Assembly: GCF_009908315.1 (NCBI RefSeq)
Contig: NZ_JAAATW010000005.1
Location: forward strand, 1-64,000
Origin: Paragemmobacter ruber
GTDB lineage: Bacteria; Pseudomonadota; Alphaproteobacteria; Rhodobacterales; Rhodobacteraceae
DNA: 64,000 nucleotides
Reading direction: 5' to 3'
Shown: in pieces, positions 4,638 through 22,661 of the stretch
Numbering within the stretch: position 1 is the first letter of the stretch
Layout: each line of letters begins with the position of its first letter
Made by a program: the position numbers and the translations under genes
The notes under the pieces: generated by a model
Databases searched by the model: none
What the model saw: the letters and a program-made list of their open reading frames with translations, nothing else
What the model was told of the DNA's origin: nothing

Positions 4638-4674
4638 GACGGCGCGGGAAGCCTCTCTCCCCGCCTCATCCGTC
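4638..4674 (-). promoter_or_regulatory. Structured 5' leader, copy C
   Basis: Read on the minus strand: outer stem GACGG/CCGTC (4670-4674 with 4638-4642), inner 6-bp stem GGGGAG/CTTCCC (4657-4662 with 4646-4651, one G-U) with loop AGAGG, then the Shine-Dalgarno GGAGA at once after the outer stem. The same architecture occurs at 6511-6554 and 22617-22661 before other plasmid genes. It may belong to the published radC RNA motif class (memory; not tested). Confidence 0.6.
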
Positions 4675-4731
4675 AAAGACAAAACCGCCGCCCTCTTCCT
4701 CGAAGGGGCGGCGGCAGGTCTGCTGGGACCA

Positions 4732-5172
4732 TCAGAGCTTGCCGAGGGCCCGCAGGCTCAGCTCCGTTCCGGCACCGACGATGATGTGGTCGTGCAGCGT
4801 CAGGCCGAGATACCTACACCCCTTCTGGATCTCCTTGGTCATGCTGAGATCGGCCTCCGACGGCGTCGGATCGCCCGAAGGGTGGTTGTGGATCAGGATC
4901 AAGGCGCTGGCGTTCAGCATCAGCGCCCGCTTGATCACCTCGCGCGGATAGACCGGGACATGGTCAACCGTGCCCGTCGAGAGAAGCTCATCGGAAATGA
5001 TGCGGTTCTTTCGGTCGAGATAGAGCACGTGGAAGCGCTCGATGGGCCCGCGGACGGTCAGCGCGCAATAGTCCATCAGCGCCTGCCAACTGCCGATGAC
5101 CGGGTTCTGGCTGAGGTAGCGGCCGAGGATGTCGCGGGCCTCGAGGATGACGGTTTCTTCCTGGGGGGTCAT
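4732..5172 (-). CDS. radC: RadC-type JAB-domain protein (short plasmid form)
   Basis: 146 residues covering only the C-terminal JAB/MPN metalloprotease-like domain of RadC. The zinc signature HNHPSGDPTPSEADLSMT is intact (H95, H97, D108), as is RFHVLYLDRKNRIISDELLSTGTV. Chromosomal RadC is about 220 residues with an N-terminal helix-hairpin-helix region, absent here. Such short forms are common on plasmids and ICEs next to antirestriction genes; despite the name, a DNA-repair role is not established. It belongs to the minus-strand block with the DUF932 gene upstream. Confidence 0.88.
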   Translation of the reverse strand: MTPQEETVILEARDILGRYLSQNPVIGSWQALMDYCALTVRGPIERFHVLYLDRKNRIISDELLSTGTVDHVPVYPREVIKRALMLNASALILIHNHPSGDPTPSEADLSMTKEIQKGCRYLGLTLHDHIIVGAGTELSLRALGKL

Positions 5173-5298
5173 GGGAGTTCTCGCTGAAATGCGCAGGCCG
5201 AAGCCCCCTACCCTCTCGGGGCGGGGCCAACGGCATGCATTTGAAAGAGGAGTGCGCGACCGCCGCCGATGCAGGCGGTCGCGTTGTCGATCCCGGCG

Positions 5299-6498
5299 TC
5301 AGCCGACCCGGTCGAGCAGCTTCTTGGCGCGCCCTTCCATGTCGAGGCGGGCATCCTGCTGGGTCTTGTCGCGCGCAAGCCGCGTGATGCCCTGCACGAA
5401 ATCGAAGATGCTCTCGGGCGGGCGGCCCTCTTCCATCAGCACCTTCTCGATGATCTTGCCGGATTCGGCTTTCGAGAAGCCGCGTTTGCGCAGGAAGTCA
5501 TCCCTGTCCTCGTCCGTACGCGCGACGATCTGCTGCCGCGCCGCCTTGATGCCGTTTACGAACCCCTGCGGCGAGGAATTGGCAAACCGCGTCAGCGCCG
5601 GGGCCGCCTCATGGGCGAAGCGCGATGCGGCGTACTTGGAATGACGGATCGTGATCTCCTGAAAATCCTCGACGCCCCAGAGGTTGCGGTTCTGGCACAC
5701 GGCCCGAAGGTAGAAGCTGGCCATGCCGAGGGTCTTCGCCCCCACCTCGGAGTTCCAGCAGTAGAAGCCCCGGAAGTAGAGATCGGGTGAGCCGTCGGGC
5801 AGGCGGCCCGCCTCGATCGGGTTGTGATCATCGACCAGGAACAGGAAGACGTCGCGGTCAGAGGCATAAAGCGTGGTCGTGTCGCGGCTGATTTCGACAT
5901 CGGGGTTGTAGACCCCGGTCGACCAGTCAAGCACGCCCGGCACCTTCCAGCGCGTGTCGCCCGTGCCATTGCCCGCGATGCGCTGCACGGCCTTGACCAG
6001 TTCATGGTCATGGATACGGCCATAGTCGGGGCCGGTCACTGCACGCAGTTCGGTGCGGCCGTCTTCCGTCTCGAAGGTCTTGACCTGCTCGGCGCGATGG
6101 TTGGTCAGACCGTATTGCAGGTTGATCCCTGCCAGCGGCGCGGGCAGCTGCCGCAGGTAGGAGGCCGGCGCGCCGACGATGCTGGCAAGCTGGCCGAACG
6201 CCCAGTGCGTGGGCACGACCGGTTCATGCGCTTTCGGCAGCATCAGGTGCAGCCGCTCGGGGTTGTCGCGCGCGGCCTCGACCCGGATATCCGCCGTCTG
6301 CACGACCCGGCTGCGGCTGCGTTCGGACCGGCCCTTCACCGATGCCCAGAGATCATCAAGCGACAGATACCGCTCGTCATCGGGCCGGTTGAACCATTCG
6401 GACGAGACCCGCCCGTTCCGCTCACCCCGGCTCGCATCCACTTTCCATCCACCTGCCCGCGCCGGTGCGACCGGATCCAGAACTTCCACAACGCCCAT
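5299..6498 (-). CDS. DUF932 domain protein
   Basis: 399 residues with the DUF932 (phage/plasmid-like protein, DUF945-related) core: VPTHWAFGQLASIVGAPASYLRQLP, then AVTGPDYGRIHDHELVKAVQRI, WKVPGVL..., DRDVFLFLVDDHNPIE, FRGFYCWNSEVGAKTLGMASFYLRAVCQNRNLWG. No catalytic residues are known for the family, which is widespread on plasmids beside ParB, RadC and Ssb genes. The start at 6498 follows GGGAGA and the structured leader 6511-6554. It is the first gene of the 1.8-6.5 kb minus-strand block. Confidence 0.85.
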   Translation of the reverse strand: MGVVEVLDPVAPARAGGWKVDASRGERNGRVSSEWFNRPDDERYLSLDDLWASVKGRSERSRSRVVQTADIRVEAARDNPERLHLMLPKAHEPVVPTHWAFGQLASIVGAPASYLRQLPAPLAGINLQYGLTNHRAEQVKTFETEDGRTELRAVTGPDYGRIHDHELVKAVQRIAGNGTGDTRWKVPGVLDWSTGVYNPDVEISRDTTTLYASDRDVFLFLVDDHNPIEAGRLPDGSPDLYFRGFYCWNSEVGAKTLGMASFYLRAVCQNRNLWGVEDFQEITIRHSKYAASRFAHEAAPALTRFANSSPQGFVNGIKAARQQIVARTDEDRDDFLRKRGFSKAESGKIIEKVLMEEGRPPESIFDFVQGITRLARDKTQQDARLDMEGRAKKLLDRVG

Positions 6499-6510
6499 CG
6501 GCTATCTCCC

Positions 6511-6554
6511 GTGACAGGCGCCGGAAGCCACTCTCCCAGCCCTCAACCCGTCAC
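6511..6554 (-). promoter_or_regulatory. Structured 5' leader, copy A
   Basis: On the minus strand GTGACGGG (6547-6554) pairs with CCTGTCAC (6511-6518) over 8 bp including one G-U. Inside, GGGAG (6533-6537) pairs with CTTCC (6523-6527) around the loop AGTGG. The ribosome binding site GGGAG (6506-6510) follows directly and the DUF932 start is 12 nt after the stem. The core CTTCCGGCGCC is identical to copy B at 22617-22661, where the outer stem has compensating differences. Confidence 0.65.
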
Positions 6555-6854
6555 CGGGAAACCGGCACGTCTCTCACTCTGGTCGACGTGAAGGGCAGAT
6601 AGCAGACGGCCGCCGCGATGTGCGGTTCCGTGACTGCGTCGCAAAGCAGCCATTCGATGGAGGGAATGGGCCTGATGTCCAACCTTGTTCAGTCTAAATT
6701 TTAATTTGAAGAAAGTTCTGCATCGCTTCCCCGGCTGCGGTTCTGGCGCATCCGCGACCGAACTACGTCGCGAAGACGACAATCATCTAGTGGCGCGATC
6801 TTCGGCTGTTCCAGCGTGACACTCCGCCTTGACGATCTTCGGTCGAGCGCCTGA
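6555..6854. other. 300 bp without a convincing gene
   Basis: Lies between the DUF932 leader and the YnfA gene. It contains an AT-rich stretch (about 6690-6720) unlike its surroundings and no ORF with credible composition; a 79-codon minus-strand frame at 6543-6782 has no family resemblance and overlaps the leader RNA. It probably contains the left junction of the metal-resistance island, but no inverted or direct repeats marking it were recognised. Confidence 0.5.
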
Positions 6855-7196
6855 CTAGCTCCCCATCGCCCTTGGACCGAACAGGATGACCGCCGCGCCG
6901 AAGAGGCAGATCGCCCCGCCTGTCAGGTCCCAGGCGTCCGGCCGCTGCTTTTCGACCATCCAGAGCCAGAGGAGCGATGCGGCGATGTAGACCCCGCCGT
7001 AGGCCGCATAGGCGCGCCCGGCGAAGTCGGATGGGGCGAGCGCGAGCAGCCATGCGAAGGCGGCGAGGCTCGCCACTCCGGGGACAAGCCAGATGGCGCT
7101 CGCCCCCTGCCGCATCCAGGCCCAGACCGCGAAGCAGCCCGCGATCTCGGCCAAGGCGGCACCGGCATAGATGGCGAGTGTGCCGGGCGCGGTCAC
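6855..7196 (-). CDS. ynfA: YnfA/UPF0060 small membrane protein
   Basis: 113 residues, four predicted hydrophobic helices, with family marks [62 protein letters not shown]. YnfA proteins are small inner-membrane proteins with an SMR-like fold; function is poorly defined. The GTG start at 7196 overlaps the MerR gene stop in GTGA, so the two are translationally coupled. Placement under a metal-sensing MerR gene suggests induction or autoregulation together with metal response. An upstream in-frame extension is only the overlapping MerR reading frame. Confidence 0.85.
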
Positions 7197-7633
7197 GGAC
7201 CGGCCTCGCTCTCCGGATGGCGGTGGTCGGTGGAGCAGAGGGAATGGTCGCCCAGCACCTCGATCACCCGGCAATCGGCAATCTTGCCGCCCGCGCATTG
7301 CACGACCATCCGCTCCAGTTCGGCCTTCAGCGCCGTCAGCCGCGCGAGGCGGCGCTCCACCTCCGCAAGCTGCGCGCGCGCGATGGCGTCGGCTGCGACG
7401 CAAGGCTGTTCGGGATTGTCCGAGAGGCTGAGAAGGTCACGGATCGCCTCGAGCGTGAAGCCGAGGTCCCGTGCGTGGCGGATGAAGGCAAGCCGTTCCA
7501 ACGCCTTGCGTCCGTAGAGCCGCTGGTTGCCGGCGCTGCGCCCGGCCTCGGGCAGAAGCCCGATCTGTTCGTAGTAGCGGATGGTCGGAACCTTCACTCC
7601 GGCCTGCGCCCCGAGTTTTCCGATGGTCAGCAT
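7193..7633 (-). CDS. MerR-family heavy-metal regulator (ZntR/CadR/PbrR-like)
   Basis: 146 residues. N-terminal winged helix ([26 protein letters not shown]), a long dimerisation helix (about 80-112) and metal-binding Cys C78, C113 and C121, the spacing typical of Hg/Pb/Cd/Zn sensors rather than of CueR. It is divergent from the P-type ATPase gene and controls the 19-bp-spaced promoter at 7644-7674. Start ATG 7633. Its last codons overlap ynfA. Which metal it senses cannot be decided; the C-terminal tail [11 protein letters not shown] is Cys/His containing and could contribute a ligand. Confidence 0.9.
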
Positions 7634-7643
7634 CAGATTCCCC

Positions 7644-7674
7644 TTGAAGCTATAGTTGCTAGAGACATTAGCTT
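7644..7674 (+). promoter_or_regulatory. MerR-type promoter/operator of the Zn/Cd/Pb ATPase operon
   Basis: -35 TTGAAG (7644-7649), a 19-bp spacer and -10 TAGCTT (7669-7674). The overlong spacer and the partial dyad CTATAGTTGCTAGAG within it match ZntR/PbrR-type operators (CTATAGTAACTAGAG-like), where the regulator untwists DNA to activate. It lies 10 bp upstream of the merR start on the opposite strand and 46 bp before the ATPase start. Confidence 0.75.
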
Positions 7675-7720
7675 CCCGACTCGATGAAGACAATCGCCCC
7701 GCGCGGGCCGAGGATTGACG

Positions 7721-10018
7721 ATGGCCGAAGCACGAAACGAAACCGCTTGCGACTGGACCGTGAGGGGCATGGATTGCGGATCCTGCGCCACCAAGATCAA
7801 GGATGCGGTGTCGCGCCTGCCGGGAGTGAGCGGTGTCGAGGTCGCCATCATGTCGGAACGTCTCCGTCTGACCCTCGACGAGGCGCAAACCGGGCGGGAC
7901 AGGATCGAGAGCGCCGTTCGTGCGCTCGGCTATGAGATCGCGCCACGGGCAGCATCGGCGAGGAAGGACTTTGTGCTGCCCGCGACGCCGACGGCAGGGG
8001 TGCCCGGCGAGAGGGATGGCGGGGCAGATCCATCGGGCCACGACCATGACGGTCATGACCATGCGACGCACGGGAAGGTTTCGCCGCGTGACGACTCGGG
8101 CCATGGCAGCGCGGGCCATGTCCACGATGACCCCGCCGACAGGGGCAAGCCCTGGTACCAGACCGGAAAGGGCAAGCTGGTCATCTTCACGGCAGTCCTG
8201 CTCGGCGCGGCCTGGATCGTCGAGTTGATCGCGCCGGACATCGGCCGATGGGCTTTTGTCGCGGCCTGCCTCATCGGGGTTGCTCCGGTCGCGCGGCGCG
8301 CCTTCGCCGCGCTGCGGATGGGCCAACCCTTCACCATCGAGAGCCTGATGACGATTGCCGCCGTCGGCGCGCTGTTCATCGACGCGGCGGAAGAGGCGGC
8401 GCTGGTCGTGTTCCTCTTCGCGGTCGGCGAGGTGCTTGAAGGTGTGGCGGCGGGCAAGGCGCGCGACGGCATCCGAGCCCTGGCCAAACTGGTGCCCAAG
8501 ACGGCGCTCCTCGAAGTGAACGGCACCACGCGCGAGGTTCCTGCGGCGAGCCTGGCCATTGGCCAGACCGTCCTGGTACGCCCGGGCGACCGCATCCCGG
8601 CGGACGGCGAGATCGTCGAGGGCACCTCGGGTGTGGATGAAAGCCCGGTCACCGGCGAAAGCGTGCCAAGGACGCGCGGACCCGGGGATGCGGTGTTTGC
8701 CGGGGCAATCAATACCGAAGCGGCCCTCCGTGTGGCGGTGACAAAAGGGGCCGAGGACAACACCATCGCGCGGATCATCCGGCTGGTCGAGGAAGCGGAG
8801 GAGGCGCGCGCGCCGACGGAACGCTTCATCGACAGGTTCAGCCGCTGGTACATGCCGGCCATCGTTGGCGTCGCGGCGCTGGTCGTGCTGGTGCCGCCAC
8901 TGGCCTTCGGCCAACCCTGGGATACTTGGGTCTATCGTGGCCTGGCGCTGCTTCTGATCGGCTGCCCCTGCGCGCTGGTGATCTCGGTTCCGGCCTCGAT
9001 CGCCTCGGCGCTGTCCTCCGGTGCGCGACGTGGGCTGCTGATGAAAGGCGGCGCGGTGATCGAGGCGGCGTCCAAGATCGGCTGGGTCGCCTTCGACAAG
9101 ACCGGTACCCTGACGCATGGCCGGCCGCAGGTGACCGATGTGGTGCCCTTCGGCAAGACGACCGAGGCCGAGCTTCTGGCTGTCGCCGCGGGCGTCGAGA
9201 CGGGGTCGAGCCACCCGTTGGCGGTCGCCATCCTGAACCGTGCGAAGGACGCGGGCGTCGCGCCGCTCGCCGCCAGCGACGCCAAGGCGCTGATGGGCAA
9301 GGGCGTCGTGGCGACGGTCGACGGCGCCCCGGCCTGGGTCGCCTCGCCCCGCTACGCCATGGACAACGGCGGCCTTGACGGGCTTGGACTGCGCCAGGCA
9401 ACGATCTTCGAAGAGGAGGGCAAGACCGCCGTCGCGGTGTTCCGCGCGAATTCCCCGCTCGGCCTGATCGCGATGCGCGACGAGCCGCGGGCGGATGCGA
9501 AGGATGCCGTGCGCCAGCTGACTGCCATGGGCCTGACCCCCGTCATCCTGACCGGCGACAACCCGCGGACGGCGGCGGCGATCGCGGGCGGCCTTGGCCT
9601 GAAGTTCGAGGCCGACATGCTTCCCGAGGACAAGCTCGCCTATATTCGCGAGATCGGGGCGAAGGACGGCGTCATGATGATCGGTGACGGCATCAACGAT
9701 GCGCCCGCCCTGAAGCAGGCGTCGGTCGGCGTCGCCATGGGATCGGGCACCGATGTGGCGCTGGAAACCGCCGATGCGGCGATCCTGCGCGACCGCGTGA
9801 CCGACATTCCCGCAACCATCCGCCTCTCGCGCGCGGCCATGGCCAACATCCGTCAGAACGTCACCATCGCCCTGGGGCTGAAGGCGGTGTTCCTCGTCAC
9901 CTCGGTCCTTGGCCTGACGGGCCTCTGGATCGCGATCCTGGCCGATACGGGTGCGACGGTGCTGGTGACGCTGAACGCGCTGCGTCTCTTGCGGTTCAAC
10001 CCCGAACGCGAGGCGTGA
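7721..10018 (+). CDS. zntA: Zn2+/Cd2+/Pb2+-exporting P-type ATPase (P1B-2)
   Basis: 765 residues. One N-terminal HMA domain (GMDCGSC, C19/C22), a His-rich linker (HDHDGHDHATHG ... HGSAGHVH, about 108-140), membrane helices, the CPC metal-site motif (IGCPCALVIS), DKTGTLTHG phosphorylation site, SSHPLAVAI and [12 protein letters not shown]. The last helices carry GLKAVFLV...LADTGATVLV with the Lys and Asp typical of ZntA-type pumps, which separates it from copper ATPases. It exports divalent soft metals from the cytosol. ATG 7721 has GAGG 7 nt upstream; TTG 7715 is less likely. First gene of a coupled operon with ICMT, LspA, DsbB and DsbA-like proteins. Confidence 0.93.
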   Translation: MAEARNETACDWTVRGMDCGSCATKIKDAVSRLPGVSGVEVAIMSERLRLTLDEAQTGRDRIESAVRALGYEIAPRAASARKDFVLPATPTAGVPGERDGGADPSGHDHDGHDHATHGKVSPRDDSGHGSAGHVHDDPADRGKPWYQTGKGKLVIFTAVLLGAAWIVELIAPDIGRWAFVAACLIGVAPVARRAFAALRMGQPFTIESLMTIAAVGALFIDAAEEAALVVFLFAVGEVLEGVAAGKARDGIRALAKLVPKTALLEVNGTTREVPAASLAIGQTVLVRPGDRIPADGEIVEGTSGVDESPVTGESVPRTRGPGDAVFAGAINTEAALRVAVTKGAEDNTIARIIRLVEEAEEARAPTERFIDRFSRWYMPAIVGVAALVVLVPPLAFGQPWDTWVYRGLALLLIGCPCALVISVPASIASALSSGARRGLLMKGGAVIEAASKIGWVAFDKTGTLTHGRPQVTDVVPFGKTTEAELLAVAAGVETGSSHPLAVAILNRAKDAGVAPLAASDAKALMGKGVVATVDGAPAWVASPRYAMDNGGLDGLGLRQATIFEEEGKTAVAVFRANSPLGLIAMRDEPRADAKDAVRQLTAMGLTPVILTGDNPRTAAAIAGGLGLKFEADMLPEDKLAYIREIGAKDGVMMIGDGINDAPALKQASVGVAMGSGTDVALETADAAILRDRVTDIPATIRLSRAAMANIRQNVTIALGLKAVFLVTSVLGLTGLWIAILADTGATVLVTLNALRLLRFNPEREA

Positions 10019-10022
10019 GGCG

Positions 10023-10646
10023 ATGATGTCGGCTTTCGGCTGGGCCGCGCTGGCCCTTCTCTTCGGCTATCTGGCACTGTTCCTCTGGGGGACCACGGCG
10101 GCGACGCAGGCGGCGGGCAGGCCGGTCTGGCTGTTCGGGCAGGCAAGGGGACGCGAGCGGCTGGCCGCCTTCGGGTTTCGTGCGGCCTTCGTGCTTGCCT
10201 TCTTCGGGCCGCTTCTCTGGCTGGCATGGCCTGTACTCCACAAGGCCGATCCGTTCTGGACCGAAGGCGGGGCGGTTGCCGCCGGGCTGATCGGTGTCTT
10301 CATCGCGGGCGTGGGGGCGATGGTCGCCTTTGCGGCGCAGATGTCGATGGGCGCCTCCTGGCGGGTAGGGGTTGTGCCCGGCGCGACGGGCGCCCTCGTC
10401 ACGGGCGGGCTCTACCGCTACAGCCGGAACCCCACCTTCGTGGGGCAGTTCGCCTTGCTGGCCGGTGTCGCGCTCGCGGCGTCTTCGCTGCCCACTGTCG
10501 TCGCGCCGCTCGTCTTCCTGTGGTCGGCTGTCACACAGGTGCGCACGGAGGAGACGGCCCTGCGGGCGGCACTCGGGGCGGACTACGACCGCTACACCGC
10601 CGCCGTGCCGCGCTGGATCGGGCTGCGCCAGGGAACCGCTCCATGA
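10023..10646 (+). CDS. Isoprenylcysteine methyltransferase (ICMT/PEMT)-family membrane protein
   Basis: 207 residues with about five hydrophobic helices and the SAM-binding C-terminal signature of the ICMT/phospholipid methyltransferase family (VTGGLYRYSRNPTFVGQF, then EETALRAALGADYDRYTAAVPRWI). Bacterial members next to heavy-metal ATPases have no defined substrate; a lipid or small-molecule methylation is inferred only. Starts 4 bp after the ATPase stop and ends overlapping lspA in ATGA, so it is an integral operon member. Alternative ATG at 10026. Confidence 0.85.
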   Translation: MMSAFGWAALALLFGYLALFLWGTTAATQAAGRPVWLFGQARGRERLAAFGFRAAFVLAFFGPLLWLAWPVLHKADPFWTEGGAVAAGLIGVFIAGVGAMVAFAAQMSMGASWRVGVVPGATGALVTGGLYRYSRNPTFVGQFALLAGVALAASSLPTVVAPLVFLWSAVTQVRTEETALRAALGADYDRYTAAVPRWIGLRQGTAP

Positions 10647-12202: not shown

Positions 12203-12210
12203 CGCCGCCG

Positions 12211-12663
12211 TCAGGACTTGCTGGCGAAGGCCGCGAAGAGGGCCAGCGTGCGCGCGCTGACGTGATGCTCGATCCCCTCGGCGTCGCGCTCGGCGGTTTC
12301 GGGGTCGAGGCCCAGGCTCAGCAGGAACCGCAGCACGATCTCGTGCCGCCGACGGCACTCCCGGGCCAGCGCGCGGCCCTCGTCGGTCAGGAACACGGAC
12401 CGATACCGCGCCCGGGTGATCAGGCCCTCCCGGGCCAGACGGTCGAGCGTCTTGGTCACCGTCGGGACCCGGACGCCAAGCCGCGCGGCGATATCCACCG
12501 GCCGCGCCTCGCCGTGGTCGTGGATCAGTTCGGCGATCAGTTCGACATAGTCCTCGGCCAGCTCGCGGCTGCGCGCCGCGCGCACGCCCTGGAACGCCTC
12601 GGCCCGCAGGTCGGCGGCTCGGTCATCGGTGCCCATGCGGTTCTTCGGATCGATCCCTGTCAT
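12211..12663 (-). CDS. mntR: MntR/DtxR-family manganese-responsive repressor
   Basis: 150 residues. N-terminal winged helix ([48 protein letters not shown]), then a dimerisation domain with candidate Mn ligands in [12 protein letters not shown] and [13 protein letters not shown]. No SH3 domain, as in MntR. Divergent from mntH with a palindrome between them, so it likely represses mntH when Mn is plentiful. ATG 12663 and ATG 12636 are both possible starts; neither has a clear ribosome binding site. Confidence 0.9.
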
Positions 12664-15844: not shown

Positions 15845-15860
15845 AAGGTCATTCTGCCAG

Positions 15861-17024
15861 ATGATCCGCTCTGCCCTCATCGTCCTCGTCGCCACCACTC
15901 TTGTGCCCTTGCGGGCTGTTGCCGACCCGCCGACCGCGCACGGTCCAGCCGTGATCGATGTGACGATCGCCTCAGGCGACACGCTCGACAGCGTGCTTGA
16001 CCGCGCAGGTGTCCCCGCGGGCATCCGGGCCGAGGCCGCCCTGGCGCTTGCGGGGGTCTACGACCTGACCGACCTGCGACCCAGTCATCGCGTCGAGTGG
16101 ACGGCCGCATCGGGCGATCCGACCAGCCTGACGCGCCTGTCGCTTTTCGTGGAAGATGGCGTCGAGATTGCATTGACGTTCAATGGCCAGGTGACAGTCG
16201 AGCGCCTTCATCCTCCGATCCGTGAAGCAGACCGGCGGGAAACGCTTGTCCTTGACGGCACGCTTTACGAAGCCCTCGTCGCGCGCAACGCGCCGGAGCG
16301 CTTCGCCGTGGACCTGACCGCGCTCCTCGCGGGCCAGGTCGATTTCCGGCGCGATCTGCAGGGCGGCGAGACCTTCGCGCTGGTCTGGCAGGAAGACCAG
16401 CTTCCTGACGGCAGCATCGCGGGTGAGCCCCGGCTGAACTATGCGCGGCTGGAACTTGCAGACCGGGTGCTTGAGCTTGTCGCCACCGAAGCCGCAGGAC
16501 CCGTCATCGTGTTCGAGGACGGGGAAGCCGTCCAGCGGTCTGCCGCGCCGATCCTCGGTGCCCGGCTGTCGTCTGTCTTCGGGCGACGCAACCATCCTGT
16601 TCTCGGGGGCGTGCGGATGCACACCGGGATCGACTATGCCGCTCCGGTCGGAACCGAGGTCTCGGCCACCGGTGCCGGGCGTGTGGTCTTTGCCGGTACG
16701 ATCCGAGGTTACGGTCTGACCATCGACATCGATCACGGCGGCGGGGTTGTGACGCGCTATGCCCATCTGTCCGAGATTGCCGAGGATGTTCGGGAAGGCA
16801 CCCGGGTCAAGGCCGGTGACAGCATCGGTGCCGTTGGCGCGACGGGCCTCGTAAGTGGCCCGAACCTGCACTACGAGGTCCGCGTTGACGGTCGGCCGGT
16901 CGATCCGACGGACCGGGACGCCCTGCCGGAACAAGAGATTGCCTCGTCCGAGGATCTTGATGCGCTGACGACATGGCGCCGCGAGACGGGCTTTGAAGCT
17001 TTGGTAGTAGGAGATCGGGGATGA
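15861..17024 (+). CDS. M23-family murein endopeptidase, exported
   Basis: 387 residues. Signal peptide (MIRSALIVLVATTLVPLRAVA), an N-terminal LysM/opacity-associated-like region, a middle beta domain and a C-terminal lysostaphin-type M23 domain: FGRRNHPVLGGVRMHTGIDYAAP (H254, D258) and GPNLHYEVRVDGRPVDP (H337). These are the Zn ligands and catalytic residues of DD-endopeptidases. Why a peptidoglycan hydrolase sits in a copper cluster is not evident; cell-wall opening for assembly is speculation. ATG 15861; stop overlaps DUF411 in ATGA. Confidence 0.88.
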   Translation: MIRSALIVLVATTLVPLRAVADPPTAHGPAVIDVTIASGDTLDSVLDRAGVPAGIRAEAALALAGVYDLTDLRPSHRVEWTAASGDPTSLTRLSLFVEDGVEIALTFNGQVTVERLHPPIREADRRETLVLDGTLYEALVARNAPERFAVDLTALLAGQVDFRRDLQGGETFALVWQEDQLPDGSIAGEPRLNYARLELADRVLELVATEAAGPVIVFEDGEAVQRSAAPILGARLSSVFGRRNHPVLGGVRMHTGIDYAAPVGTEVSATGAGRVVFAGTIRGYGLTIDIDHGGGVVTRYAHLSEIAEDVREGTRVKAGDSIGAVGATGLVSGPNLHYEVRVDGRPVDPTDRDALPEQEIASSEDLDALTTWRRETGFEALVVGDRG

Positions 17025-17500
17025 GCGGGCAGCACATCCGACGACGCAACCTGCTGCTTGCGGCAGCGGCGAGCGTCGCGGTCCCGGGGCGCGCCGCCTG
17101 GTCGCAAGCGGAACCACCGATCCATGTCGTCAAGGGACGCGGCTGTGAATGCTGCGATGCCTGGGTCGACTACCTGCGCGAGCAAGGCTTCACCGTGACG
17201 GACGAAGTGTCGATGGGAACGCTGCTGATCCGCTTCAAGATGGACCATGGCGTCCCGGCGAAGGCTTTCTCCTGTCATACCGGCGTGGTCGATGGCTATG
17301 CGCTTGAAGGCCACGTTCCTGCCGCCGACATCCGGCGCCTGCTGGCCGAACGCCCCGATGCGGTCGGACTTGCGGTCCCTGGTATGCCCTACGGCTCGCC
17401 CGGCATGGGGCCGGAGGACCAGCGCGATGCCTATGACGTCCTGCTGATCCGTCGCGACGGTTCGCTGGATGTGTACTCCCGGAACGCAGCGAGATCCTGA
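17021..17500 (+). CDS. DUF411 copper-associated metal-binding protein
   Basis: 159 residues with a Tat-like leader (RRRNLLLAAAASVAVPGRAAW) and the DUF411 signature VVKGRGCECCDAWVDYLREQGF and FSCHTGVVDGYALEGHVPAADI. Cys C41, C43, C44 and the SCHT Cys are likely copper ligands. Found next to copper resistance genes (CopG-like group). Last gene of the SCO-PCuAC-SCO-M23-DUF411 run; overlaps the M23 gene by 4 bp. Confidence 0.87.
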   Translation: MSGQHIRRRNLLLAAAASVAVPGRAAWSQAEPPIHVVKGRGCECCDAWVDYLREQGFTVTDEVSMGTLLIRFKMDHGVPAKAFSCHTGVVDGYALEGHVPAADIRRLLAERPDAVGLAVPGMPYGSPGMGPEDQRDAYDVLLIRRDGSLDVYSRNAARS

Positions 17501-17530
17501 GCCACCCGCGAGCTGCGGCAGGCGAGAAGC

Positions 17531-17839
17531 CTAGAAGTCGGTTTTCAGGTAGACCCCGGCGCAGTCGCAGGCGACGGCAGCGACCGTCGCGCCGGTGTTC
17601 ATGAACAGCCGCGGCGAAAGGAACTGCGTCGTGGCGGGCAGGTCGGCGGTGATTTCCTGCTCGAAGACCGCGCCCGAAATCTCGCCGACGACGCGCATCC
17701 AGACGGAGCTGCCATTCGGCGGGGCGGCGATGAACAGTGTCAGCACGCCGCCGGTGGCAATGGCGAAACTCGCCCCCATGTCGGTGAGCGTCGGCGCGCC
17801 TGTGCGGTTGCTTGCGACAAGCCGTAAGGCAGGCCTAGT
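17531..17839 (-). pseudogene. C-terminal remnant of a phage-tail/structural-type protein
   Basis: Open frame beginning directly after a TAG at 17840-17842 with no ribosome binding site: TRPALRLVASNRTGAPTLTDMGASFAIATGG... and ending VACDCAGVYLKTDF. The beta-rich, Gly/Thr-rich composition recalls C-terminal domains of phage minor structural proteins, but identity is uncertain. The sequence looks continuous through the ATG at 17779, so this is a 5'-deleted gene. It sits at the right border of the metal island and may mark an old phage or recombination junction. Confidence 0.45.
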
Positions 17840-17916
17840 CTAAGCATTCGAACGACCGCTTGCTAGGGTGCAGCGCAATGAGCCCGACCGGCAGGTATGG
17901 GCCGAAAACGACGGAA

Positions 17917-17938
17917 CCCGGCGGGTTTCCCCGCCGGG
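17917..17938 (-). terminator. Terminator-like hairpin downstream of ssb
   Basis: Perfect 9-bp stem CCCGGCGGG/CCCGCCGGG with a 4-nt loop, 25 bp after the ssb stop on the minus strand. The following bases (TTCCGTCGTTTTC) are moderately T-rich. Confidence 0.6.
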
Positions 17939-17962
17939 CCCTAGGGGGAGACCCCGTTCTTT

Positions 17963-18367
17963 TCAGAACGGAATCTCGTCGTCGCGATCGACCAACTCTG
18001 GGTTTTCGTTCTCGGCCGACTTCGGGCGGCTCAGGAAGTCGACCTTCTCGGCGATGATCTCGCAGCCGTAGCGGTCGTTCCCCATGCTGTCGATCCACTT
18101 GGTGTAGTGGATGCGGCCGTGGACGAGGACCTTCATGCCCTTCTCGCAGTGCTCTGCGACGGTCTTGCCGAGACCATTGAAGCAGGTGATGCGGTGCCAC
18201 TCGGTGTCCATGACCCGGTAGCCGTTCTCGTCGCGCATCACGCGACCTTCCGAGAGGCGGGGCCGCGAGGTGGCCAGGGTGAAGTTGGTGATCTTGGTAC
18301 CGCTTTGGGTCGAGCGCACTTCGGGCTTTTGACCGATGTTGCCGGCGAGGATGACGATGTTCTGCAT
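17963..18367 (-). CDS. ssb: Single-stranded DNA-binding protein (plasmid copy)
   Basis: 134 residues. OB-fold start MQNIVILAGNIGQKPEVRSTQSGTKITNFTLATS, then WHRITCFNGLGKTVAEHCEKGMKVLVHGRIH, and the acidic protein-interaction tip DDEIPF. Shorter than chromosomal SSB (about 170), typical of plasmid forms that bind and protect ssDNA during replication or transfer. ATG 18367 with AGGAG 8 nt upstream. A short palindrome GTCCCAGGGAC about 40 nt upstream of the start may be an operator. Confidence 0.93.
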   Translation of the reverse strand: MQNIVILAGNIGQKPEVRSTQSGTKITNFTLATSRPRLSEGRVMRDENGYRVMDTEWHRITCFNGLGKTVAEHCEKGMKVLVHGRIHYTKWIDSMGNDRYGCEIIAEKVDFLSRPKSAENENPELVDRDDEIPF

Positions 18368-18791
18368 TTTGTAGCTCCTGTGTTTCCTGTCCCTGGGACC
18401 GTCCCTTCGACAAGACCCGGAAAAAGCCTGTCGGCTGAGGTGTGCACGGGAGACGGAACGTCGACCGGAAACCCCCAGAGGACCGGGGTGGAGCGGGCAG
18501 TCCCGAAGGGGCAACACGGCCCGGACTGACGCGGGGTTGCGCGCCAGAGGACGAACAGGCTTAGGGGATTGTCAGTCGAAGGGATGGCACCGGGGATAGG
18601 GGCGACCTGGGGCTCTCGCAGAACTCGACCTTCCTGGCCAAGGTAACGGGGTTGAAGCCCTTTCGAGAGCATCGACCCGGCGACTCAAGCCAACCTCATC
18701 CCCCTGCCCTATTGCGGTGACCTCCACGGGAGTTGCGATGTTGCAACCTGACGGCTATCCCGGACGCATCAGTCAGGACGCGAGGGGCCCA
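18368..18791. other. Divergent intergenic region between ssb and the H-NS-like gene
   Basis: About 420 bp that must hold promoters for ssb (minus) and the H-NS-like gene (plus). Apart from the GTCCCAGGGAC palindrome next to ssb, no convincing promoter pair, ORF or RNA structure was recognised. It is GC-rich, with several short G/C-rich inverted repeats that may be chance. Confidence 0.4.
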
Positions 18792-19109
18792 ATGGCTGAT
18801 TTCAATCTCGAGGCACTGTCGCTCAAGGATCTGCGGCAAATGCAGAAAGACCTCGCCAAGGCGATTTCCACCTATGGGGACCGGCACAAGGCAGAAGCCC
18901 GTGCCAAGCTGGAAGCCATCGCCAAGGAGATGGGATACTCCCTCGCCGAACTGATCGGTATTGAGGTGAAAGCCACCCGTGCGCCAGCAGTGGCGAAGTA
19001 TCGTCACCCTGAGAATGCGGCTCTCACCTGGTCTGGCCGTGGCCGGAAACCGCAATGGTTCGCGGATCATATCAATGCGGGCAGAGACCCGAGCGAGCTC
19101 GCTGTCTAG
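18792..19109 (+). CDS. H-NS-family nucleoid-associated protein
   Basis: 105 residues. Coiled N-terminus (LKDLRQMQKDLAKAISTYGDRHKAEARAKLEAIAKEMG, about 12-50) for oligomerisation, then the C-terminal H-NS DNA-binding motif KYRHPENAALTWSGRGRKPQWFADHI, where RGRKP is the AT-hook-like minor-groove contact. Plasmid H-NS proteins silence AT-rich acquired genes and reduce fitness cost. ATG 18792 fits the family length; a 25-residue upstream extension has no similarity. Transcribed opposite to ssb. Confidence 0.88.
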   Translation: MADFNLEALSLKDLRQMQKDLAKAISTYGDRHKAEARAKLEAIAKEMGYSLAELIGIEVKATRAPAVAKYRHPENAALTWSGRGRKPQWFADHINAGRDPSELAV

Positions 19110-19305
19110 GGACAGCGAAGTGGGAACGGCCAATTCGCCGGCGGCAGACAGCTGATCGCAACTTCCCAAGAGCAGCGGTGATCGCCCATTTGGCGTGCCG
19201 ACCACCGTCGGCTCATTCTGCCGTTCGGCCCGGGATGGCAGACAGGCGAAAGGCCCGGATCGGAGCCTTCGCTCCGCCTCCGAACCTCAGGAGAATCCGT
19301 GGGCC

Positions 19306-19470
19306 TTACGCCCACGGATCGACCTCGGCGACCACTTGCACCTCGTCTCCGTCGATTTCATCGGCGGGGACAGCGCCGAAGGTTCCATCCCCTGCCTGGA
19401 AGACGACGATCGAGACCATGAGCGTGGCGGCGAGGGAGGCGGCGAAGGCGTGAGCATCTTTGCGGGACAT
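19306..19470 (-). CDS. Small single-pass membrane or secreted protein, 54 aa
   Basis: 54 residues: MSRKDAHAFAASLAATLMVSIVVFQ is a basic head plus one hydrophobic helix (about 8-25), followed by an acidic tail ending DGDEVQVVAEVDPWA. AGGAG lies 8 nt before ATG 19470, and that site falls inside the hairpin at 19480-19520. Not recognised; related small genes occur beside ssb and ParB-like genes on plasmids (memory only). Composition and the elaborate leader argue that it is real. Confidence 0.6.
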   Translation of the reverse strand: MSRKDAHAFAASLAATLMVSIVVFQAGDGTFGAVPADEIDGDEVQVVAEVDPWA

Positions 19471-19479
19471 CTGTTTGGC

Positions 19480-19520
19480 TCCTGTCTTGGAGGCGGGGGA
19501 CCATCCCCCGCGCGACAGGA
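19480..19520 (-). promoter_or_regulatory. Shine-Dalgarno-sequestering two-stem hairpin
   Basis: In the minus-strand mRNA: TCCTGTC (19514-19520) pairs with GACAGGA (19480-19486), closing an inner perfect stem GCGGGGGA/TCCCCCGC (19504-19511 with 19493-19500) with a TGG loop. The 3' strand of the outer stem contains AGGA of the ribosome binding site for the gene starting at 19470. It could act as a thermometer, protein-controlled or translation-coupled switch; GC content suggests it is very stable. Confidence 0.65.
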
Positions 19521-19813
19521 CCCCGCAGGCCCGAAGACTGGCTGACATCACTGGGTGCGTTCGGCTCGCCCGAATCCGCCCGGCGGCACGGGCTTGCCCG
19601 TAGTCCGACCCCTTGCGGGTTGATCTCGAAGACGGGATTCAGGGCAAGGAAGGGAATGGCGAGCGGGGGACGGTCCCCCAACGTCAGGAGCCAGTTGTCC
19701 CGCTGATGCTTGGAACGCCGCCAGCCTCCCGGGCAGGCTTGTGGTTGAAGACCTCCGTCTTTGGGGATGGATCCTATGGTGCCCCGCGGCATCGCGGGAC
19801 GAGGGTGCGGTCG
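19521..19813. other. Non-coding stretch upstream of the 54-aa gene
   Basis: About 290 bp between the hairpin leader and the terminator of the next minus-strand gene. It should contain a minus-strand promoter. Frames present in it have no recognisable products. Nothing else is seen. Confidence 0.4.
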
Positions 19814-19845
19814 GTGAGAGGCCCGCCCTTCGGCAGGCCCCTCAC
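19814..19845 (-). terminator. Long imperfect hairpin after the 157-aa gene
   Basis: Stem GTGAG-GGCC-GCC against GGC-GGCC-CTCAC with single mismatches and a CTTC/GAAG tetraloop, starting 14 bp past the stop of the minus-strand gene. No clear U-run follows, so it could be a processing or pause structure rather than a terminator. Confidence 0.45.
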
Positions 19846-19858
19846 GCAGTATCAGGGC

Positions 19859-20332
19859 TCAGGCGGCCAAGTCCGCGCCCCCCGCCCTATCGCCGTCCTC
19901 GGCACCGACGATTTCTAGCCGCGCGTTTCGGTAGCCTTCGCGTGCGATCCAGAGCTCGGCCGCAGTGATGGACTCCGCCAGATGCAGCAGCTCGGTGTTG
20001 CCACCGAAGTCCAGCAGGACGCGCACCTGCCCGGGCTTCGGTTCCTCGGCCACTTCGAAGATCAGCCGGCTGTCGGCGGAATGGCTGCGCATGATGGTGA
20101 CGAGGATCACCCCGTCCGAGGAAAAGTTCCCTTCATGCAGCGTGAAGGAGGCCGGCGCCGTCCAAGTCTGATATGCCCTGGGCGGTTCCTTCTTCACAAG
20201 GCGGCCGACGCCGTTCGAGCGCTCCCAGGCCGCGAGCTTCTTGGTGAAACGTGCCGGCGGCTTGGGACTGCCGTCGGTATAGCGGATCAGCGCCCCGAGG
20301 GGGGCTATGTCGATGATGGTTGTTGCAGACAT
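19859..20332 (-). CDS. Hypothetical plasmid protein, 157 aa
   Basis: 157 residues starting MSATTIIDIAPLGALIRYTDGSPKPPARFTKKLAAWE. Middle part EGNFSSDGVILVTIMRSHSADSRLIFEVAEEPKPGQVRVLLDFG looks beta-rich; the C-terminus is AEDGDRAGGADLAA. No known motif. ATG 20332 has GAGG 8 nt upstream; the longer frame adds residues encoded by the inverted repeat at 20347-20366 and is less likely. Lies 100 bp downstream of the large ParB-like gene on the same strand. Confidence 0.65.
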   Translation of the reverse strand: MSATTIIDIAPLGALIRYTDGSPKPPARFTKKLAAWERSNGVGRLVKKEPPRAYQTWTAPASFTLHEGNFSSDGVILVTIMRSHSADSRLIFEVAEEPKPGQVRVLLDFGGNTELLHLAESITAAELWIAREGYRNARLEIVGAEDGDRAGGADLAA

Positions 20333-20346
20333 GATTTCCTCGTTTC

Positions 20347-20366
20347 GAATGCGAGACGTCGCATTC
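20347..20366 (-). promoter_or_regulatory. 8-bp inverted repeat before the 157-aa gene
   Basis: GAATGCGA-GACG-TCGCATTC, perfect arms around 4 bases, ending 14 bp upstream of the start codon and abutting the ribosome binding site. It could be an operator for a dimeric repressor or an RNA hairpin just 5' of the Shine-Dalgarno. Confidence 0.5.
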
Positions 20367-20432
20367 ATCATATGGATATTGCTGTACTTTGTGAGACCGG
20401 GGGCGAGTTTCCTCGCCCCCGGATGGCTCAGA

Positions 20433-22604
20433 TCACTCTGCGGCCATCATCGACGCGGCGCTGTCCGGCAAATCGGCAGTCAGGAAGGCGGGGAGATCGA
20501 CATCCTCGGGCTGTTCCGCGTCCTCCCCCTGCCCTTCTGCGATCTCCTCGCCGTCGGACACCACCAGATCGGCCCGGCGCAGGACCTCGGGCAACCAACC
20601 GCTGCCCTTCAGAAGCCGCTCGGCCTCGGTCGCCATTTCGCCCTTCTTCAGATGATCGAGCAGCTGCGCGGTCCCCTCGCCCTTCGCCTCGCGCACGGCC
20701 TCGAGGATCCGGGCCTTGGGCACGCGGTTGAGATAGCCGTCGACCGTCGGCTCCCAGCCCGCCTCGACCATGTCGAGATCGACCGCGCGCGCCACCAGAT
20801 CGGCATGGGTCATGCGGCGGGTCAGACCGCTGGCGGAGATGCCAGCCCCATAGGGATTCACCTTCTCATGGAGCGCGTTGATCCCGAAGCTGAGGCAGTG
20901 CGCCAGCAGCGCCAGACGGCTGCCGTGGTCGAGGACCGTCAGATAGTCCCAGAGGGCGGCATCATCGCCGAGAGGCAGATCAGCCTCCCAGGCGGCGTGA
21001 CGCTCGTCGACCAGCTTGGCCACGACGCTGTCCTTCAGATCGGGCGCCTGGGCCGACATGTAGACATGACGCACCGAGGCTTCCAGACAGCTGCCCGAGG
21101 CAGAAGAGGTGCGGAAGGTATCCGTCACCAGCTTCAGGAGCAGGAGCGTCAGCGCCACGTCCGGCGACCGCCCGATGGCCTCGCGCAGCGCGAGGGTCCG
21201 GTGGGCCGTCAGTTCCATGACCAGTCGCTCGGGCAACGGCTTCAGCGCACCGTCATCTTCCTCATCGGAAGCATCCGCGCCGATCGGCTGACCGCCCGAA
21301 GTGATGACGGTGCCTCCGGCGGAGGTCGCCGACGGTTTCCAGGTAGAAACACCGACATCACCCCCCTGCCCCATGGCATCTGCTCCATCACCATCCTGGA
21401 CCGCGGTCTCCTCGCGCGGCTCATCCTCGGGCCGGACATAACCGCGATAGACCGCAAGGCTGCCGTCCCGATCCAGCGTCACGAAGACACCCGCGCGCGC
21501 GATCTCGGCCTCATCGTAAATCAGCGGCCGCTGCTCAAGCGCTTCCATCGCCATCTCGAGCTGACCGAGCCGCGCATCGATCTCCTCGGGGTATTCGTCC
21601 TGGCCGGAGTATTCTTCCTCTAGCGCCCGATACTCGGCGAGGAGCGAAGCGTGGGCCGCGCTTTCCTCGTCGGTCATCGGCGCAGGATCACCGGCCAGAC
21701 GCCGCAGACCGTGGCTGTAGCCATAGGGCAGGTCGGTCGCGACCTCGATCCACTTCCATCCCTCCGAAGCCAGAGCCTCGGCTTCCGCCTGAAGCTTCGC
21801 GGCCACCAGCCGGTCGAGCAGGGCAGGGTCTTCGAGCCAGCCACCGTCGTCACCCTGGAAGAGGTCGCGCAGCACGACACCTCCCGCCGCCTCATAGGCA
21901 TCGACACCCACGAAGACCGCGCGACGATCCGAGGCCCGCACCGAGGTCTCGGTCAGCATGCGCCGGATGGCATAGGGCTCCTTGTTCCAGGAGTTCTTCA
22001 CCGCTTCCCAGACCTGCACCTGACGCCCGTGGTCAGGGTTCACCGTGAACGCCATTAGCTGCTCGAGCGTCATGCCATCGTCGGCATAGACATCGAGCAG
22101 GGCAGGGGCCACGGAGGCCAACTTCAGGCGCTGCTTGACGATCTGCGGCGTAACGAAGAAGGCAGCCGCAATCGCTTCCTCGCCTTGACCCTTCTCGCGC
22201 AGAGCCTGGAACGCACGGAACTGGTCGAGCGGATGCAGGGCAACGCGCTGCATGTTTTCTGCCAGCGAGTCGTCCTCGGCGAGGATCTCCGACGCGGCAT
22301 CCCGCACTATGCAAGGGATCGGCGCCGACTTCGCCAGCCGCTTCTGCTTCACCAGCAGCGACAGCGCCTGGAAGCGCCGCCCACCGGCCGGGATCTCGAA
22401 CATGCCGGTCTCGACACCCTCGGCATCGAGCATGGGCCGGACGTTCAAGCCCTGCAAAAGCCCGCGCCGGGCGATGTCCTCGGCCAGTTCCTCGACCGAG
22501 ACGCCTGCCTTGATGCGCCGCACGTTGGACTGGCTCAGCACAAGCTTGTCGAAGGGGATGTCCCGCGAGGGGGACAGGGTAACTTTCTGGGCAAGTTTCG
22601 CCAT
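20433..22604 (-). CDS. Large ParB/RepB/Spo0J-domain protein, 723 aa
   Basis: 723 residues. N-terminal ParB-like nuclease/CTPase-type domain (DIPFDKLVLSQSNVRRIKAGVSVEELAEDIARRGLLQGLNVRP, then EIPAGGRRFQALSLLV and ENMQRVALHPLDQFRAFQAL), a ParB-type HTH (EAIAAAFFVTPQIVKQRLKLASVAPALLDVY), then a long acidic, Ala-rich region without known motifs. It is more than twice the size of RepB in this window, and such giants recur on alphaproteobacterial plasmids beside ssb and DUF932 genes; a partition role is unproven. ATG 22604 follows GGAGA and structured leader copy B. Confidence 0.82.
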   Translation of the reverse strand: MAKLAQKVTLSPSRDIPFDKLVLSQSNVRRIKAGVSVEELAEDIARRGLLQGLNVRPMLDAEGVETGMFEIPAGGRRFQALSLLVKQKRLAKSAPIPCIVRDAASEILAEDDSLAENMQRVALHPLDQFRAFQALREKGQGEEAIAAAFFVTPQIVKQRLKLASVAPALLDVYADDGMTLEQLMAFTVNPDHGRQVQVWEAVKNSWNKEPYAIRRMLTETSVRASDRRAVFVGVDAYEAAGGVVLRDLFQGDDGGWLEDPALLDRLVAAKLQAEAEALASEGWKWIEVATDLPYGYSHGLRRLAGDPAPMTDEESAAHASLLAEYRALEEEYSGQDEYPEEIDARLGQLEMAMEALEQRPLIYDEAEIARAGVFVTLDRDGSLAVYRGYVRPEDEPREETAVQDGDGADAMGQGGDVGVSTWKPSATSAGGTVITSGGQPIGADASDEEDDGALKPLPERLVMELTAHRTLALREAIGRSPDVALTLLLLKLVTDTFRTSSASGSCLEASVRHVYMSAQAPDLKDSVVAKLVDERHAAWEADLPLGDDAALWDYLTVLDHGSRLALLAHCLSFGINALHEKVNPYGAGISASGLTRRMTHADLVARAVDLDMVEAGWEPTVDGYLNRVPKARILEAVREAKGEGTAQLLDHLKKGEMATEAERLLKGSGWLPEVLRRADLVVSDGEEIAEGQGEDAEQPEDVDLPAFLTADLPDSAASMMAAE

Positions 22605-22616
22605 CAGATCTTCTCC

Positions 22617-22661
22617 GCGACGGGCGCCGGAAGCCACTCTCCCGATCTCACTTCCCGTCAC
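22617..22661 (-). promoter_or_regulatory. Structured 5' leader, copy B
   Basis: On the minus strand GTGACGGG (22654-22661) pairs with CCCGTCGC (22617-22624), 8 bp with one T-G pair; GGGAG (22639-22643) pairs with CTTCC (22629-22633) around AGTGG. Relative to copy A, the outer stem swaps a G-U for G-C and an A-U for G-U, keeping the pairing. The GGAGA ribosome site follows at once and the ParB-like start is 12 nt after the stem. Confidence 0.65.

What the first reader, a model, noticed from the sequence alone, without database searches (positions are those of the whole stretch)
4638..22661. Three copies of one structured leader RNA in front of unrelated plasmid genes
Seen: minus-strand elements at 4638-4674, 6511-6554 and 22617-22661 share an outer stem, an inner GGGAG/CTTCC hairpin with loop AG(T/A)GG, and a ribosome binding site placed right after the outer stem. 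Copies A and B have compensating changes (A-U to G-U, G-U to G-C) that keep 8 outer pairs. Known: the radC RNA motif described by comparative genomics lies before radC and other DNA-associated plasmid genes, so this may be that class (from memory, untested). Inference: a shared trans factor or ligand controls a DUF932 protein, a giant ParB-like protein and a hypothetical protein together.
Basis: partly seen in the sequence, partly recalled or inferred. Interest (0 to 1): 0.78.

Follow-up and report, generated by a model that had tools for sequence, protein, structure and literature searches.

The report
Shared leader RNA on plasmid genes
Several unrelated genes that mobile DNA of alphaproteobacteria carries close together, among them genes that shield incoming DNA from the new host, start with the same small folded RNA, apparently undescribed, that sits on or beside the ribosome's landing site and probably switches them together.

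Summary
The three copies are real: the 15-base core occurs exactly three times in the window and in none of 100 shuffles. They belong to a large family of ~50-nt leader elements found in no Rfam entry: 146 matches, 131 distinct, in 100 sources searched; 75 of 292 genomes of the order and 26 of 385 of the class have one. 14 of 16 base pairs change on both sides yet stay paired and G-U far outnumbers A-C (245 to 33), so the sense RNA folds. In 122 of 131 copies ATG lies 6-8 nt behind the element. Genes served: ParB-like, DUF932-like, ArdC antirestriction and an unnamed ~180-aa family. AGAGNNAGAG sits 15-17 nt before the outer stem. In 89 of 128 copies the ribosome-binding site is predicted to pair into an extension of that stem; C-type ParB leaders (0 of 25) are the exception, and their best single-sequence fold usually lacks the stem. 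The radC-motif idea fails. Best reading: an RNA operator co-regulating translation of conjugative 'establishment' genes, probably through a shared trans factor; factor, signal and direction are inferred.

The parts
4633..4676 (-). leader RNA copy A (outer stem, inner hairpin, ribosome-binding site GGAG at 4634-4637)
   Evidence: searches (40.2 bits with a model that held no A-type copy; 48.8 bits), fold
4693..4702 (-). purine motif of copy A (CGAGGAAGAG, one mismatch to AGAGNNAGAG), 16 nt before the element; lies in the loop and 3' arm of a G+C-rich hairpin behind radC
   Evidence: read; spacing of the motif in the family; hairpin
4107..4625 (-). gene behind copy A: 172-aa protein of an unnamed family
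   Evidence: no Pfam or NCBIfam match, no PDB sequence match below E 0.03; eight-member alignment with 23 invariant columns
4732..5172 (-). radC-like gene between the genes of copies B and A; bears no copy
   Evidence: Pfam RadC E 8e-41, no element
5299..6498 (-). gene behind copy B: 399-aa DUF932-like protein
   Evidence: DUF932 E 0.0013, below Pfam's cut-off; relatives annotated DUF932 in public plasmids
6506..6554 (-). leader RNA copy B (ribosome-binding site GGGAG at 6506-6510)
6571..6580 (-). purine motif of copy B (AGAGTGAGAG), 16 nt before the element
   Evidence: family spacing
20433..22604 (-). gene behind copy C: 723-aa ParB-like protein
   Evidence: Pfam ParB_N E 3.8e-6; PRTRC ParB and other ParB models below their cut-offs
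22612..22661 (-). leader RNA copy C (ribosome-binding site GGAG at 22613-22616); of the type that does not pair its ribosome-binding site with the upstream strand
   Evidence: fold uncertain
22678..22687 (-). purine motif of copy C (AGAGGGAAAG, one mismatch), 16 nt before the element
   Evidence: read; family spacing

Best explanation
The elements are a family of cis-acting leader RNAs that control translation initiation of the establishment module of alphaproteobacterial conjugative plasmids and islands. SHOWN by computation: a conserved RNA fold P1 (8 pairs, 5' strand GUGACGGG) - asymmetric internal loop - P2 (8 pairs) - loop AGWGG, an upstream purine motif at fixed distance, the Shine-Dalgarno sequence directly behind P1, and the start codon 6-8 nt further on. 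In most copies the nucleotides before P1 (UUUCC, CUUC) pair with the Shine-Dalgarno sequence, so P1 runs through it. INFERRED: this makes the default state translationally closed or weak; a shared trans factor, most likely a protein that reads the near-invariant GUGACGGG strand, the AGWGG hairpin and the AGAGNNAGAG motif, changes access of the ribosome and so tunes ArdC, ParB-like, DUF932-like and the ~180-aa proteins together, for example as a burst on entry into a recipient and silence afterwards.
For: Fold: 97.0% of 1656 cells paired against 91.9% in shuffles, 14 of 16 pairs with two-sided changes, 81 such cells against 16.1, covariation score 0.304 against 0.04-0.09 when slid; the same helices, extended two pairs into the Shine-Dalgarno sequence, from RNAalifold on 44 sequences aligned without the model; 243 of 254 and 433 of 452 cells paired in hits fetched after the models were built. 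Single-sequence folding of each leader in context contains the P1 core in 98 of 103 copies outside the C-type. Sense RNA: G-U 245, A-C 33 of 1656 cells; for the three window copies antisense folds like shuffles (z -0.30, -0.25, 0.23) and sense better (z -1.96, -2.55, -1.91). In P1's 3' strand, letters opposite C and A hardly vary (105 of 105 G; 104 of 105 T, the exception compensated), those opposite G and U vary mostly to the wobble partner. Start codon: 122 of 131 ATG at 6-8 nt; 8 at -1 to 1 nt, 1 none. Shine-Dalgarno pairing: >=4 contiguous pairs in 59 of 130 against mean 5.8, maximum 14 in 500 shuffles; P>=0.5 in 89 of 128 against 147 of 640 with the 16 nt shuffled. Purine motif: 76 of 131 exact, all at 15-17 nt, 50 more with one mismatch, 0 of 131 exact in a control window. 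Conservation starts there in the ParB and DUF932 classes. Context: ardC or DUF932 - ParB - large helicase - toprim - DUF2493.
Against: No transcript, protein or expression evidence. C-type ParB leaders, copy C among them, do not pair their Shine-Dalgarno sequence with the upstream strand (0 of 25) and their best single-sequence fold has the P1 core in only 3 of 25, so neither closure nor the fold itself is secure for that type. Relatives were found with models of this structure, which leans the pair counts; no phylogeny-corrected covariation test was run. Shared-factor test: within-locus leaders more alike (0 of 2000 permutations) but 12, 152 and 315 of 2000 reach the observed value as near-duplicates are removed. 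No regulator identified. The role of DUF932-like, ParB-like and ~180-aa proteins in establishment is inferred from company with ArdC; position relative to oriT was not tested. Part of the 16 nt upstream may serve a competing mini-hairpin instead.
Confidence: 0.6

Rival explanations
1. A constitutive translation module: the hairpin and purine motif act as a portable ribosome standby or mRNA-protecting leader that sets a fixed low output in many hosts, with no regulator.
For: Present in many genera of Alphaproteobacteria, near-constant distance to ATG, no regulator found, sits in front of unrelated genes.
Against: Near-invariance of GUGACGGG and the AGWGG loop while P2 drifts points to sequence-specific recognition; burying the ribosome-binding site in folds of about -44 to -54 kcal/mol (class means outside the C-type) is an odd way to secure constant output.
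Confidence: 0.2
2. A DNA-level element: a single-stranded-DNA promoter like Frpo, or a double-stranded operator/promoter with AGAGNNAGAG and GTGACGGG as two boxes about 16 bp apart.
For: Rigid 15-17 bp spacing, near-invariant 5' strand, genes of the kind that ssDNA promoters serve in other plasmids (PMC11541004, passages); for the C-type the RNA fold is insecure.
Against: G-U far exceeds A-C pairs. Folded as RNA only the sense strand of the three copies beats shuffles; folded as DNA neither strand clearly does (sense z -0.43, -1.55, -0.71; antisense 0.04, -0.25, 0.43). P1's 3' strand follows the 5' strand by wobble rules, which a promoter box does not require. No sigma-70-type site around A and B (0 found, 0.3 expected; C not scanned). 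Fixed distance to the start codon and overlap with the ribosome-binding site.
Confidence: 0.08
3. A small-molecule riboswitch of SAM-II or SAM/SAH size that senses a metabolite or nucleotide signal tied to DNA entry.
For: About 50 nt, directly on the ribosome-binding site, moderately conserved internal loop, possible alternative mini-hairpin before P1 (77 of 105 against mean 51.5, maximum 64 in 300 shuffles).
Against: Target genes are not metabolic; no Rfam riboswitch matches the elements; the most conserved positions are a helix strand and purine motifs rather than an evident pocket.
Confidence: 0.08
4. Target site of a small RNA encoded by the plasmids or hosts.
For: A purine motif at a fixed place is a plausible seed.
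Against: No sRNA was found; exact AGAGNNAGAG (4 sites, 1.8 expected) and GTGACGGG (7 sites, 3.6 expected) are little above chance in the window; no Rfam sRNA over the elements. No search for complementary sRNAs was made.
Confidence: 0.04

Closest known systems
radC RNA motif (Rfam RF01754; table entry in PMC2864571 seen in passages; gene association recalled)
   Same: Structured RNA before genes of DNA-related proteins in Proteobacteria.
   Different: 149 model positions against 49; no match; the window's radC lacks the element.
STAXI motif (PMC2864571, passage; RF01728)
   Same: Near genes for ssDNA-binding, topoisomerase, antirestriction and integrase proteins.
   Different: [quoted passage not shown] here single nested hairpins at the ribosome-binding site; no Rfam match.
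EGeRS1/EGeRS2 establishment-gene regulatory sequences of Bacillus pLS20-family plasmids (PMC8708921, abstract and passages)
   Same: One conserved upstream element repeated before ardC and other establishment genes of one plasmid, defining a regulon.
   Different: EGeRS1 is about 400-750 bp with many inverted repeats, EGeRS2 a promoter with operators of a repressor protein; ours is ~50-80 nt, at the ribosome-binding site, Alphaproteobacteria, and looks translational.
Frpo/ssi single-stranded-DNA promoters (PMC11541004, passages)
   Same: Folded element before early, anti-defence genes of incoming plasmids.
   Different: Works as DNA with -35/-10 boxes; ours folds as sense RNA and no such boxes were seen around A and B.
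SAM-II and SAM/SAH leader riboswitches (SAM/SAH: PMC2864571 passage; SAM-II recalled)
   Same: Short alphaproteobacterial leaders before the start codon.
   Different: Metabolic genes and known ligands; no Rfam match here.

Membership tests
radC RNA motif RF01754 | covariance-model match above the gathering score | tested here: not met
   direct search: 0 of 11 genomes over cut-off, nothing on contig C5
radC RNA motif RF01754 | located in the 5' leader of radC (recalled) | tested here: not met
   radC-like gene at 4732-5172 has no element
STAXI RF01728 | pseudoknot repeated two to three times in tandem | tested here: not met
   no Rfam match at the elements; consensus fold is nested (a method that cannot show pseudoknots)
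Frpo ssDNA promoter | -35 and -10 boxes in the folded strand | tested here: inconclusive
   no sigma-70-type site in 4500-6900, but the scan uses one consensus and did not cover copy C
Frpo ssDNA promoter | stable fold of the template strand as single-stranded DNA | tested here: not met
   antisense strand folds like shuffles with DNA and RNA parameters for the three copies; which strand is transferred was not tested
EGeRS-like establishment regulon | same element before ardC and other genes of one mobile element | tested here: met
   43 element sets with leaders on two or more gene families, 18 of them with ardC (at least one pair, L037 and L072, overlaps)
EGeRS-like establishment regulon | transient expression after entry into a recipient | not testable with these tools
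   needs expression data
structured cis-regulatory leader RNA (general kind) | covarying fold in a fixed relation to start codons | tested here: met
structured cis-regulatory leader RNA (general kind) | transcribed as part of the mRNA | not tested
   no transcript data at hand; the wobble pattern is indirect support

The most novel reading that the evidence does not exclude
Alphaproteobacterial conjugative plasmids and islands run an establishment regulon at the RNA level: key entry genes carry the same leader, in most of them with the ribosome-binding site folded away, and one factor, carried by the element or donated by the host, opens or closes them together when the DNA arrives in a new cell.
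Probability: 0.3. Interest if true: 0.88.

Novelty: new variant of a known kind. Interest (0 to 1): 0.72.

Why it matters
As far as I know, how alphaproteobacterial conjugative elements time the genes that protect incoming DNA is poorly understood. A single, easily searchable leader RNA marks such genes, names new candidate establishment or anti-defence proteins by association (the unnamed ~180-aa family, DUF932-like, ParB-like, DUF3768), and gives a direct handle for finding the factor that controls them. It would also add a family to the RNA catalogue.

Tried and rejected
radC motif: tested and rejected. Rfam on 13 further loci (61,969 bases, E<=1): no family over an element. Complementarity of GUGACGGG to the 16S decoding region (recalled): no 16S gene was found in the own assembly, so not tested; an 8-mer is a weak match and I give it little weight. 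A pseudoknot between the P1-P2 loop and the stretch before ATG, seen by eye in B and C, did not hold by eye in L011 and was dropped without a count. Alternative mini-hairpin before P1: only mildly above control. Co-evolution of leaders within a locus: 0 of 2000 permutations on 43 sets, then 12, 152 and 315 of 2000 after dereplication at 0.95, 0.90 and 0.85, 22 of 2000 without the ~180-aa family: inconclusive. AlphaFold model of the ~180-aa protein: mean pLDDT 65, no PDB fold at E<=0.001. That protein in viral contigs: none; the core pattern in viral contigs: none. One exact core match, L013, lacks the outer stem and looks like chance. Paper searches: no title or abstract start among the listed papers describes the element; six papers were opened, by word search only, supplements not at all, so a description elsewhere is not excluded.

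Rows left out before counts: 7 of 63 matches (weaker than E 1e-5) were not used for model R2; one search was given 100 of the 114 sources then held (cap; left out: four pattern loci without an element, L013, six copies of the window's own elements, L097, L112, L113); 15 of 146 matches were exact duplicates; one cut-off match was left out and two more with short downstream sequence.
Full report
WHAT WAS CLAIMED AND WHAT IS THERE. They are real. The core GGGAGAGWGGCTTCC occurs exactly three times in 64 kb and in none of 100 dinucleotide shuffles. A covariance model R1 built from 11 B- and C-type copies finds C (73 bits), B (71 bits) and, although no A-type copy was in its seed, A (40 bits, E 3.5e-7); the next best place in the window has 17 bits, E 0.1.

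NEIGHBOURHOOD. The three genes are a 723-aa ParB-like protein behind repC (C), a 399-aa DUF932-like protein (B; Pfam DUF932 E 0.0013, under the curated cut-off) and a 172-aa protein with no Pfam or NCBIfam match (A). A RadC-like gene (4732-5172) lies between B's and A's genes and has no copy. The replicon carries repC (22771-23982). Annotated relatives have repABC - ParB - ... - SSB - DUF932-like gene (annotated hypothetical) - radC - A gene - DUF6878 - ... - large helicase - toprim - DUF2493 (Martelella pMM259; Celeribacter). Other elements have ArdC or DUF932, then ParB, large helicase, toprim, DUF2493 (Mesorhizobium; Aminobacter), or the same without an annotated large helicase (Methylobacterium; Rhizobium, with DUF932). 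The large helicase is annotated strawberry notch and methyltransferase/DEAD box helicase.

SPREAD. Blastn with 71 bases at E<=1: B hits 167 plasmid records, A 78; an ArdC-type leader of 111 bases hits 218 at E<=0.01; the hosts named include Rhodobacterales, Rhizobiales and Sphingobium. With the models: 75 of 292 genomes of the order (E<=0.01, R1), 26 of 385 of the class (E<=0.001, R2), 24 of 299 drawn from the phylum, all 24 in the same family or class (how many of the 299 lie outside the class is not shown). These searches use filters that lose weak matches. An exact pattern finds 19 stretches in the named species genomes, all with alphaproteobacterial titles (Afipia, Azorhizobium, Chelativorans, Tistrella, Thioclava, Gemmobacter, Rhodobacter capsulatus and others) and none in viral contigs. 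Some hits lie on contigs of more than a megabase (G190:C3, G321:C1, G341:C4), consistent with integrated islands.

THE FOLD. Model R2 (56 matches) run over 100 sources gave 146 matches, 106 distinct aligned rows. Of 1656 cells 97.0% are standard pairs (shuffles 91.9%, sliding by 1-3 columns 23-51%); 14 of 16 pairs have two-sided changes, 81 cells against 16.1. RNAalifold on a MAFFT alignment of 44 chosen sequences, not fitted to the model, gives the same helices and adds two pairs into the ribosome-binding site. In 45 distinct rows fetched after the models were built, 243 of 254 and 433 of 452 cells pair. The relatives were found with the sequence or the structure model, so the counts lean to it; no tree-corrected test was run. 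Wobble pairs: G-U 245, A-C 33, other mismatches 17 of 1656 cells. That asymmetry, the near-invariance of 3'-strand letters opposite C and A, and the failure of the antisense strand to fold better than shuffles say that the sense RNA is what folds. Folding each leader by itself in its context gives the P1 core in 98 of 103 copies outside the C-type but only 3 of 25 of the C-type: for copy C the drawn fold rests on its conserved letters, not on its energy.

ANATOMY. 5' AGAGNNAGAG (76 of 131 distinct copies exact, those all 15-17 nt before P1; 50 more with one mismatch; 5 without; 0 of 131 exact in a control window) - about 16 nt - P1 GUGACGGG/CCCGUCRY - internal loop of 5-8 nt against 1-3 nt - P2 of up to 8 pairs - loop AGWGG - GGAG - ATG 6-8 nt behind the element in 122 of 131. 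In the ParB and DUF932 classes conservation rises from background at the purine motif and nothing further upstream is conserved; ArdC leaders have a further conserved stretch. The 5' strand of P1 is almost invariant while its 3' strand drifts mostly among wobble partners, so the 5' strand has a duty beyond pairing.

THE RIBOSOME-BINDING SITE. The 4-6 nt before P1 often read UUUCC, CUUC and the like and can pair with GGAGA behind P1. At least four contiguous such pairs exist in 59 of 130 copies; shuffling the 16 upstream nt gives 5.8 on average, 14 at most. In the thermodynamic ensemble the site is paired to the 5' side (P>=0.5) in 89 of 128 copies, against 147 of 640 shuffled versions: ArdC 17 of 17, ParB other than C-type 31 of 33, A-type 9 of 10, DUF932 22 of 28, other 10 of 15, C-type ParB 0 of 25. 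In the window: A 0.56, B 0.84, C 0.0004. So most leaders look closed by default; the C-type does not.

GENES SERVED. Of 131 distinct copies: ParB-like 58, DUF932-like 28, ArdC 17, A-type 10, other 18; eight of the 'other' belong to the family of the A gene (173-185 aa). ArdC was confirmed by Pfam for one member (ArdcN E 1e-43). One 'other' is DUF3768; several are broken or cut frames. 43 element sets carry leaders on two or more of the gene families, 18 with ardC (L037 and L072 overlap).

MECHANISM. I commit to a translational operator. The steps shown by computation are the fold, its place on or beside the ribosome-binding site, the predicted closure in most members, and the shared use by a module that in part of the loci contains ArdC. 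The steps inferred are that the mRNA carries the element, that a common factor reads GUGACGGG, the AGWGG hairpin and the purine motif, and that the purpose is timed expression during establishment in a recipient. [quoted passage not shown] that is the functional analogy. A test for leaders of one replicon being more alike than leaders of different replicons, which a factor carried by the element would predict, gave 0.744 against 0.725 (0 of 2000 permutations) but weakened to 12, 152 and 315 of 2000 as near-duplicates were removed: suggestive at most.

KNOWN FAMILIES. Not the radC motif; not STAXI; no Rfam match over an element in 13 further loci. Frpo-like ssDNA promoters are disfavoured by the wobble pattern and by the lack of a stable DNA fold; the -35/-10 scan is inconclusive. 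Nine answered paper searches listed no paper whose title or abstract start describes this element; the library is open-access only and supplements were not read.

VERDICT. A well-supported new family of structured leader RNAs that ties together genes of the establishment module of alphaproteobacterial mobile elements, with one divergent type (that of copy C) whose fold is less sure. Regulation and its factor are open and directly testable.

Noticed in passing
window 5173-5298 (-): The radC gene has a different structured leader: a terminator-like hairpin followed by a long hairpin, similar in L008, L009 and L080 but not in L077.
   Followed up: partly
window 22719-22734 and 22754-22769: Two perfect palindromes GTTCACAGCTGTGAAC between repC and the ParB-like gene; they look like repABC parS sites (recalled, not tested).
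   Followed up: partly
window 31215-31401 (+) and 60342-60558 (-): Two cobalamin riboswitches.
   Followed up: no
window 4107-4625 and relatives L065:8079-8636, L072:2195-2719, L118 near 20415: An unnamed 172-185 aa protein family with a conserved D....L.L.G........W..PV core, often behind the leader; no Pfam, NCBIfam or confident PDB match.
   Followed up: partly
L124:16376-16424 (+): A weak match (33 bits) with normal P1 but a different P2 and no purine motif, before another small protein; perhaps a divergent subtype.
   Followed up: no
ArdC-class leaders, about 30-45 nt upstream of P1 (e.g. L085, L087): An extra conserved stretch near CCCCGCAACGCCCC upstream of the purine motif, shared by some DUF932 leaders (L090, L091, L095).
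   Followed up: no
L067:7181-7245 (+): Sub-threshold match to the cyanobacterial sRNA Yfr1 (33.2 of 38 bits, E 0.009) just behind the ParB-like gene; probably chance.
   Followed up: no
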